Of a DNA stretch of 64,000 bases, positions 1-60,905 are shown one piece after another. Each line of letters begins with the position of its first letter. The stretch's first letter is position 1. The DNA is taken from positions 62,001 through 126,000 of the forward strand of contig NZ_QEKH01000007.1 in assembly GCF_003096415.1 (NCBI RefSeq), in the 5' to 3' direction. The notes beneath the pieces are model-generated. The model had not been told where the DNA came from. It saw nothing but the letters and a program-made list of their open reading frames with translations, and ran no database searches. The position numbers were made by a program, and so were the translations under genes. Source of the stretch: Victivallis vadensis (GTDB taxonomy: Bacteria > Verrucomicrobiota > Lentisphaeria > Victivallales > Victivallaceae).

Positions 1-898
1 GTGCCGAATACTTCAGATCCGGGAAAGGCGGAACGCCTTTCCCTCCGGGAGGGGGAGCCCTGATGGAGACAGGCATGGTTGTACAGGAGCGGCACACCGC
101 TCCGGTCGGCGCAAAGCCTGCTTTTTTGCCCGGAATGACGAGTACGGCGAAGCCGCACGGAGGAATGGAGGGAGGGGCCCACGAAAAGTACCCGCAGCTT
201 TTGGGCTTTGCCCAAAAGTCCCGAGGCCCGTGGCCGAAGGGAGGCAACTTTTTGGGGAGGGGGCACTCCCTGCGCCTGCTGCCGCCGGAGGTCACGCGCG
301 AAACCTCCAGATGCTAACCATCTGATTTGAAGTTACTCTGATGGAGGCTGAACTCTCCCTACCTTTTCATACAGGCAAGATTCAGTAAGGCTCGTATTCA
401 AAGATATGCTTGTCTGTGATATGACAATTGTATTGTTGCCTGACCTCGCCTTGCCTATATGGGAGTTTAGCTCTTATCAGCCTCCATCAGGGTATCTTTC
501 TATTACCCGGTCAGCATCTGGAGGTTTCGCGCGTGACCTCCGGCGGCAGCAGGCGCAGGGAGTGCCCCCTCCCCAAAAAGTTGCCTCCCTTCGGCCACGG
601 GCCTCGGGACTTTTGGGCAAAGCCCAAAAGCTGCGGGTACTTTTCGTGGGCCCCTCCCTTCATTCCTCCGTGCGGCTTCGCCGTACCCGTCATTCCGGGC
701 AAAAAAGCCGACGCGGTCGCCGACCGGAGCGGTGTGCCGCTCAGGTACTCGCCTGCCTGTCCACAGTAGAGCCTCCCCCCATCCGGAGGGAAAGGCGGTA
801 CGCCTTTTCCGGATCTCAAGTATTCGGCGCCGGCACCTTGCCGGTCGGGGTCAAGGGGCGAAGCGCCCTTGTCGCTGCGATCAGCAGCGAAATCCCCG
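1..898. repeat. Large palindromic intergenic element, copy 1 (left end cut by window)
   Basis: Positions 121-315 and 513-707 are inverted copies of each other, 195 bp long with only a couple of mismatches seen by eye. They enclose a centre at 316-512 that is also conserved in the copy at 60220-60905. Outside these arms lie further, less perfect inverted modules. The centre has its own inverted pair, CTGATGGAGGCTGA near 338 and TCAGCCTCCATCAG near 477. The right end, which reads GCGAAATCCCC, stops three bases before the stop codon of the next gene at 901. Each arm has a short inward-facing reading frame (63-317 plus, 511-819 minus) ending in the same peptide. I regard these as by-products of the repeat. 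No transposase is present. Confidence 0.85.
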
Positions 899-45581: not shown

Positions 45582-45671
45582 AATGTTTTCTCCTGTATCA
45601 TTTGTCATTCCTGACCATGTCGTTGTGAGGAAGAAGCCGTGCCGTTTTCTCGGCACATTGCTAATATACCC

Positions 45672-45733
45672 CGGTTTTGGGATTTTTGCACAGCAAAAAT
45701 CTCAAAACCGCCCCCGGCGCCGGCACCTTGCCG
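45672..45733. repeat. Long hairpin followed by the CCGGCACCTTGCCGG motif
   Basis: Positions 45672-45689 and 45693-45710 form an 18-base stem with one G-T type mismatch and a three-base loop. The hairpin motif CCGGCA-CCT-TGCCGG follows at 45719-45733. It lies between the stop of the GH42-like gene and the start of the isomerase gene. It may end the upstream transcript but lacks a T run; it looks like a remnant of the dispersed repeats. Confidence 0.6.
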
Positions 45734-45782
45734 GTGCGGAGTACTGCCCATAGCCCCCATAAACTGATGGATATTACCCCCG

Positions 45783-60219: not shown

Positions 60220-60905
60220 GGGATTTCGCTCCTATTGGAGCGACCAAGGCGCTTCGCCCTTGGAACCCGACCGGCAAGGTGCCGGTGCCGAATACTTCAG
60301 ATCCGGGAAAGGGGAGCCCTGATGGAGACAGGCAGGGTTGTACAGGAGCGGCACACCGCTCCGGTCGGCGCAAAGCCCGCTTTTTTGCGGGCTTTAGGCA
60401 CTCCCTGCGCCTGCTGCCGCCGGAGGTCACGCTCGGAACTTCCAGATACTGACCATCTGATGTGAAGTTACTCTCATGGAGGCTGAACTCTCCCCTGCCT
60501 TTTCATACAGGCAAGGTTCAGTAAGGCTCGTACTCAAAGATATGCTTACCTGTGATATGACAATTGCATTGTTGCCTGACCTCGCTTTGCGTATATCGGC
60601 AGATAAACTCTTATCAGCCTCCATCAGGGTATCTTTCTATTACCCAGTCAGCATCTGGCCGTTCCGCGCGTGACCTCCGGCGGCAGCAGGTGCAGGGAGT
60701 GCCTAAAGCCCGCAAAAAAGCGGGCTTTGTGCCGACCGGAGCGGTGTGCCGCTCCTGTACAACCCTGCCTGTCTCCAGCAGAGTCTCCCACCCGGAGGGA
60801 AAGGCGGAACGCCTTTCCCGGATCTGCAGTATTCGGCACCGGCACCTTGCCGGTCGGGTTCCAAGGGCGAAGCGCCTTGGTCGCTCCGGGAGGAGCGAAA
60901 TCCCC
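60220..60905. repeat. Large palindromic intergenic element, copy 2 (complete)
   Basis: This 686-base element begins GGGGATTTCGC and ends GCGAAATCCCC. Its arms (about 60220-60455 and 60648-60905) are inverted copies, and the centre (about 60456-60647) closely matches 316-512. It fills almost exactly the space between the stop of the hydrolase (60215) and the stop of the AraC gene (60905). Both arms lack the module at about 130-265 that both arms of copy 1 contain. The CCGGCA-CCT-TGCCGG hairpin occurs near both ends. No protein gene is apparent. Confidence 0.87.

What the first reader, a model, noticed from the sequence alone, without database searches (positions are those of the whole stretch)
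60220..60905. A 686-bp palindromic element that exactly fills the gap between two convergent stop codons
The element starts four bases after one stop codon and ends at the stop codon of the facing gene. Copy 1 also ends three bases from a stop codon (897 and 901). Long inverted arms with a conserved 190-base centre are not explained by ordinary terminators, which need 30-50 bases. It may be a bidirectional transcription barrier, a structured RNA source, or a mobile element without its own transposase.
Basis: partly seen in the sequence, partly recalled or inferred. Interest (0 to 1): 0.8.

Follow-up and report, generated by a model that had tools for sequence, protein, structure and literature searches.

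The report
Repeated hairpin-array element at gene ends
The 686-bp element is one of about 35 long copies of a non-coding repeat found only in this species, built from small hairpins arranged symmetrically around a fixed core and sitting almost always where transcription units end, in a genome that lacks the SbcCD enzyme which normally cuts long palindromes.

Summary
In detail: 60220-60904 is a near-palindrome that starts 4 bases after one stop codon and ends at the facing one. It belongs to a family of 34 full-length copies (655-961 bp), plus one partial copy, two cut by contig ends, fragments and short 30-63 bp forms. All share the ends GGGATTTCGC...GCGAAATCCC. Placement: 23 convergent, 9 tandem, 2 divergent, none inside a gene, about what random transcription-unit 3' ends would give. 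'Exactly fills the gap' is ordinary: the DNA left over (median 29 bp) equals a normal convergent gap (29.5 bp).

The giant palindrome is not what is conserved. Each arm is a row of small hairpins whose stems covary almost perfectly. Arm-to-arm pairing at the same sites is near chance. A 269-nt core (92% column identity) was found nowhere else in 137 genomes of the order.

Copies have no target duplication and no coding capacity, and the genome has no HUH/RAYT transposase. SbcC and SbcD, present side by side in five congeners, are missing from this 99.5%-complete genome.

Best reading: a lineage-specific, non-autonomous REP/BIME-like composite element, homogenised by gene conversion, tolerated only at transcription-unit ends, and persisting because SbcCD is absent. 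Termination or mRNA-end protection is plausible but unshown.

The parts
60220..60904 (+). Complete copy of the element (685 bp), ends GGGATTTCGC...GCGAAATCCC
1..896 (+). Second copy, 961 bp in all (begins 64 bases before the window); both arms carry a matching extra ~125-bp stretch
60220..60415 (+). Left arm: row of local hairpins
60416..60684 (+). Conserved 269-nt core (92% mean column identity over 26 copies), found only in this genome
60685..60904 (+). Right arm: same hairpins in reverse order
60227..60242 (+). Local hairpin H1 (alleles CGCTCC..GGAGCG and CGCC..GGCG)
   Evidence: 68 of 68 arms paired at the varying site (51 expected)
60244..60263 (+). Local hairpin H2 (CCAAGGCGCTTCGCCCTTGG or GCAGGGCGCTTCGCCCCTGC)
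   Evidence: 67 of 68 paired, 38-52 expected
60270..60286 (+). Local hairpin H3 (ACCGGCAAGGTGCCGGT); its 20-mer has 321 matches (up to 2 mismatches) in this genome and also occurs in relatives
60345..60362 (+). Local hairpin H5 (GGAGCGGCACACCGCTCC)
60372..60395 (+). Local hairpin H6 with a T6 loop (AAAGCCCGCTTTTTTGCGGGCTTT), several compensating alleles
60797..60819 (+). Local hairpin H4 in the right arm (truncated in the left arm of this copy)
281..547 (+). Core of copy 1

Best explanation
It is a non-coding, non-autonomous interspersed repeat of one lineage, of the REP/BIME or MITE-like kind but much larger. Shown: each arm is an ordered row of short self-complementary hairpins, mirrored on the other side of a conserved 269-nt core, with an outer GGGATTT/AAATCCC clamp. 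Shown: about 35 long copies sit at transcription-unit 3' ends; some copy pairs have nearly identical cores while their arms differ; no target duplication is made. Shown: SbcC and SbcD, present in five relatives, are not found in this genome. Inferred: copies spread by an unknown or vanished factor and are homogenised by gene conversion, possibly also converting the short 30-63 bp hairpins that share the same ends. Inferred: they survive only where they break no promoter or operon, and long near-palindromes are stable because SbcCD is gone. Inferred and weaker: once placed right after a stop codon, the end hairpins serve as bidirectional 3'-end hairpins for termination or mRNA protection.
For: Dispersed family with fixed ends. 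Placement: 23 of 34 convergent, p = 7e-12 against gene pairs; 2 divergent against about 28% expected, p = 0.002; none in genes. Local hairpins covary while long-range pairing stays near random expectation. No target duplication in the long copies. Sister copies with nearly identical cores but diverged arms, such as L031/L032 and L018/L040. Short forms of 30, 34 and 63 bp with the same ends, 6 of 7 convergent, match the products expected from deletion between H1/H1' or H2/H2'. No Y1/HUH transposase. SbcC/SbcD absent here and present side by side in G001, G002, G003, G005 and G008; the operon that carries them in G005, G002 and G003 is conserved here without them. In 1.24 Mb of this genome every long near-palindrome found is this element.
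Against: No movement was observed and no empty orthologous site was found; relatives are only about 66-81% identical here and not syntenic. No mobilising enzyme was identified. The SbcCD link rests on one genome; G006 and G007 also fall below the cut-offs, yet no long copy of this element was found there. In the outer 60 bp, arms of one copy are somewhat more alike than arms of different copies (0.080 against 0.126 in the first block), so some arm-arm coupling exists. Termination is unsupported by a U-tract.
Confidence: 0.62

Rival explanations
1. The element is a functional bidirectional terminator or 3'-end processing signal, selected at convergent genes, and its spread is secondary.
For: 23 of 34 convergent; in many sites only 0-15 bp separate stop codon and element, leaving little room for another terminator; end hairpins are kept by compensating changes; ordinary convergent gaps here carry stems of 8 bp or more in 21% of cases against 0% when shuffled.
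Against: The convergent share equals that of random transcription-unit 3' ends (0.72 observed, 0.62 expected, p = 0.28). No U-tract terminator beyond chance. A 30-bp hairpin would do; the 269-nt core and inner hairpins are unexplained.
Confidence: 0.25
2. It is a MITE of the resident insertion sequence whose terminal repeat is AYGCCGTGTGCAAGTTTC, moved by that transposase.
For: 11 of 34 long copies carry that repeat on one or both sides. Short palindromes with the repeat (L051, L062, L064) and one long copy (L037) show 6-7 bp target duplications.
Against: 23 of 34 copies lack the repeat. Its presence is not clustered on the core tree (10 changes against 9.5 when shuffled). Nearly identical cores occur with and without it (L031/L032). 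The element boundary is the same either way, so the repeat is better read as a host site.
Confidence: 0.1
3. It is a source of a structured RNA, the core being an RNA gene.
For: The core is conserved at 92% column identity with an asymmetric centre.
Against: No Rfam match even at E up to 1. The core fold has almost no covariation support (term -0.98). No promoter beyond chance. Not conserved outside this genome.
Confidence: 0.08
4. The palindrome arose by chance nesting of unrelated hairpins or by an assembly artefact.
For: Many unrelated intergenic hairpins exist in this genome.
Against: 34 copies with the same ends, order and core in more than 20 contigs, with the same symmetry.
Confidence: 0.01

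Closest known systems
REP sequences and BIMEs (bacterial interspersed mosaic elements)
   Same: Many interspersed extragenic palindromes, mosaics of hairpin modules, often between convergent genes (PMC1525189, PMC2817692), no coding capacity.
   Different: REPs are 20-40 bp (PMC3733652); this is 655-961 bp with a unique 269-nt core and mirror symmetry. No GTAG or CGTC tag in the arm consensus, and no RAYT (Y1) transposase in the genome.
MITEs of bacterial insertion sequences
   Same: Short non-autonomous inverted-repeat elements; some copies lie inside a terminal-repeat pair shared with a resident IS.
   Different: The unit's own ends are not IS terminal repeats, and long copies have no target duplication at those ends.
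Intrinsic bidirectional terminators
   Same: Hairpins directly after stop codons of convergent genes.
   Different: About 20 times longer, no U-tract, conserved core, repeated at unrelated loci.
Long DNA palindromes restrained by SbcCD (established knowledge from E. coli)
   Same: Near-palindromes of several hundred bp; the genome lacks SbcCD.
   Different: Here they are a natural, dispersed repeat family, with a non-palindromic centre of about 130 bases.

Membership tests
REP/BIME | Many extragenic palindromic units in mosaic arrays | tested here: met
REP/BIME | Unit length 20-40 bp | tested here: not met
   Long unit is 655-961 bp; only the single hairpins and the 30-63 bp forms come near
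REP/BIME | GTAG or CGTC tag at one end of the palindrome | tested here: not met
   Neither tetranucleotide occurs in the arm consensus printed; tag definition from the PMC3733652 abstract
REP/BIME | Associated Y1 HUH transposase (RAYT) in the genome | tested here: not met
   PF01797: no match in G000, matches in 4 relatives, control genomes ring
MITE | Terminal inverted repeats shared with a resident autonomous element | tested here: not met
   The shared repeat lies outside the unit and on only 11 of 34 copies
MITE | Target-site duplication | tested here: not met
   None in 34 long copies at the unit's own ends; present only around the outer IS repeat in 4 of 8 loci with both repeats
Intrinsic terminator | GC-rich stem followed by a U-tract | tested here: not met
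   One weak site, 0.7 expected by chance
Intrinsic terminator | Transcripts end at the site | not testable with these tools
   Needs RNA-seq or Term-seq
Known RNA family | Match to an Rfam covariance model | tested here: not met

The most novel reading that the evidence does not exclude
Loss of SbcCD in one species allowed a family of ~700-bp near-palindromes to form and spread, in a homing-like way by gene conversion, into small hairpins at the ends of transcription units, so that hairpin 3' ends act as landing sites for ever larger nested hairpins.
Probability: 0.25. Interest if true: 0.75.

Novelty: new variant of a known kind. Interest (0 to 1): 0.52.

Why it matters
Long palindromes are normally unstable in bacteria because SbcCD cuts them. 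A natural genome with some 35 dispersed near-palindromes of 0.7-0.9 kb and no SbcCD, beside congeners that keep SbcCD, makes it testable whether that nuclease limits the size of extragenic palindromic repeats. The family also shows how a repeat can grow and homogenise while only its small hairpins are preserved.

Tried and rejected
Rfam at gathering and at E up to 1: nothing. Plasmid, phage, viral and genome-contig searches for the core: nothing. RAYT/REP machinery: absent. Target duplications at the long copies: none. Insertion at the dyad of older palindromes as a general rule: only L004 and L011, plus copies lying in the outer IS repeats, show clear flanking inverted repeats; overall flank complementarity is weak beyond about 4 bases. 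Arms as a co-evolving pair: rejected, arms assort nearly at random between copies. Empty sites in relatives: not found, synteny is lost; G005 and G001 AraC-type genes simply end in TGA with no element. IS identity by Pfam on the two short end fragments: no match; the IS body was not found in the assembly, so its family is not assigned. Papers: no description of such repeats in Victivallis, a guessed candidate genus, was found.

Full report
Observation. The window holds a near-palindrome at 60220-60904 with arms of 94 bp (96% complementary) and 168 bp (89%) and a folding energy far beyond shuffles. [quoted passage not shown] A second copy, 961 bp, spans the left end of the window.

Family. The window's genome (5.2 Mb, 87 contigs, 99.5% complete) holds 34 full-length copies of 655-961 bp, one 615-bp partial copy (L046), two copies cut by contig ends and a few fragments. 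All full copies share the ends GGGATTTCGC...GCGAAATCCC within 0-2 mismatches. Six have a repeated ~90-bp stretch inside the core region (about 800 bp in all) and one a 204-bp one. In a 1.24 Mb sample every inverted repeat with arms of 80 bp or more and a spacer up to 600 bp is this element: 7 of 7. In the same sample there are also same-ended short forms of 30, 34 and 63 bp, which equal the products expected from deletion between the H1 or H2 hairpins of the two arms (the deletion is an inference). No long copy was found in 60 relatives and the core in no other of 137 genomes of the order; pattern and similarity searches of other collections were empty. One hairpin module (H3) does occur elsewhere in this genome and in its relatives, in other hairpin arrays.

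Placement. With a simple codon-model gene caller, the 34 copies lie 23 convergent, 9 tandem, 2 divergent and none inside genes. Against all neighbouring gene pairs (15% convergent) p = 7e-12. Two controls temper this. The DNA left between element and stop codons in convergent sites without the outer IS repeat (median 29 bp) is what ordinary convergent gaps measure (median 29.5 bp; p = 0.60), so 'exactly fills' is not special. And if the unit is a transcription-unit 3' end, taking tandem gaps of 100 bp or more as unit borders, the expected convergent share is 0.62 against 0.72 observed (p = 0.28). Divergent sites are depleted (p = 0.002). The rule is therefore 'ends of transcription units, not promoters, not operons'.

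Anatomy. Aligning all 68 arms shows local hairpins with alternative alleles whose two sides change together: at the main varying pairs of H1, H2, H4 and H6, 63-68 of 67-68 arms pair where about 30-52 would by chance; H6 has three pair types at one position. At the same sites left-to-right arm pairing is near its random expectation (286 of 406 against 268.5 over all tested pairs). Arms of one copy differ by 12.8%, arms of different copies by 14-15%; only the outer 60 bp are clearly more alike within a copy. So the maintained thing is an array of small hairpins; the giant palindrome follows from mirror order plus homogenisation. Compensating alleles could also be produced by quasi-palindrome correction during replication, so they show maintenance of hairpins, not necessarily selection.

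Core. The 269-nt core has 92% mean column identity over 26 copies, no Rfam match, almost no covariation support for its predicted fold and no promoter-like match.

Mobility. No target duplication flanks the unit. A longer outer repeat (AYGCCGTGTGCAAGTTTC) that is also the end of a resident IS flanks 11 copies on one or both sides; short palindromes inside it show 6-bp target duplications, so that IS has moved such sites. But presence of this repeat is unclustered on the core tree, and cores nearly identical in sequence occur with and without it. It is therefore read as a host site, not part of the unit. In several sister pairs identity is highest in the core and falls in the arms, as expected of gene conversion. 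There is no Y1/HUH transposase in the genome, although four congeners have one.

SbcCD. SbcC and SbcD lie side by side in five congeners (G001, G002, G003, G005, G008) and were not found here. In G005, G002 and G003 they sit in an operon after a glycerophosphodiester phosphodiesterase gene. The rest of that operon is conserved in this genome at C1:63176-67657, with other genes where sbcD and sbcC would be. From established knowledge, SbcCD cuts long hairpins and makes long palindromes unstable in E. coli. The association here is one genome and so correlative; G006 and G007 also fall below the cut-offs without long copies of this element.

Verdict. Observation confirmed. Interpretation partly supported: a 3'-end-located, non-autonomous repeat, with local hairpins rather than the long palindrome as the preserved structure, probably made possible by loss of SbcCD. 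A transcription role is plausible but unshown.

Noticed in passing
L236-L269 and C1:216446, C3:141480, C5:42806 in the own genome: Many paralogous prepilin-type genes ([12 protein letters not shown] leader) share a repeated GC-rich leader with the same 20-mer CCGGCAAGGTGCCGGTGCCG and a long upstream hairpin; 36 such 20-mer sites in G002 and 19 in G003.
   Followed up: partly
L272:2300-3900, L273:2300-3100 (G005): Tandem ~270-540-nt hairpin-rich units between genes, each preceded by a promoter-like TTGACC-17-TAAAAT; they end in H2/H3-like modules and a terminator-like hairpin. Possibly an undescribed repeated small RNA; no Rfam match.
   Followed up: partly
L061, L067, L068, L071, L073, L074, L076, L077: Multi-copy insertion sequence with ends ACGCCGTGTGCAAGTTTT that breaks the assembly at contig ends; its transposase body was not found assembled.
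   Followed up: partly
L051, L062, L064: 70-109 bp palindromes bounded by that IS repeat with 6-bp target duplications: small MITEs carrying only the outer hairpins of the element.
   Followed up: yes
window 1-896: Copy 1 carries a matching ~125-bp insertion in both arms at mirror positions, absent from most copies. How both arms gained it is unexplained.
   Followed up: no
C2:6038, C2:39083, C2:96083, C5:28810, window 45640-45735: A second intergenic hairpin array downstream of genes: GCCTCCGGCGGC, CCGGGGGCGCTTCGCCCCCGG, H3, then a long GGTTTTGAGATTTTTGC..GCAAAAATCTCAAAACC stem.
   Followed up: no
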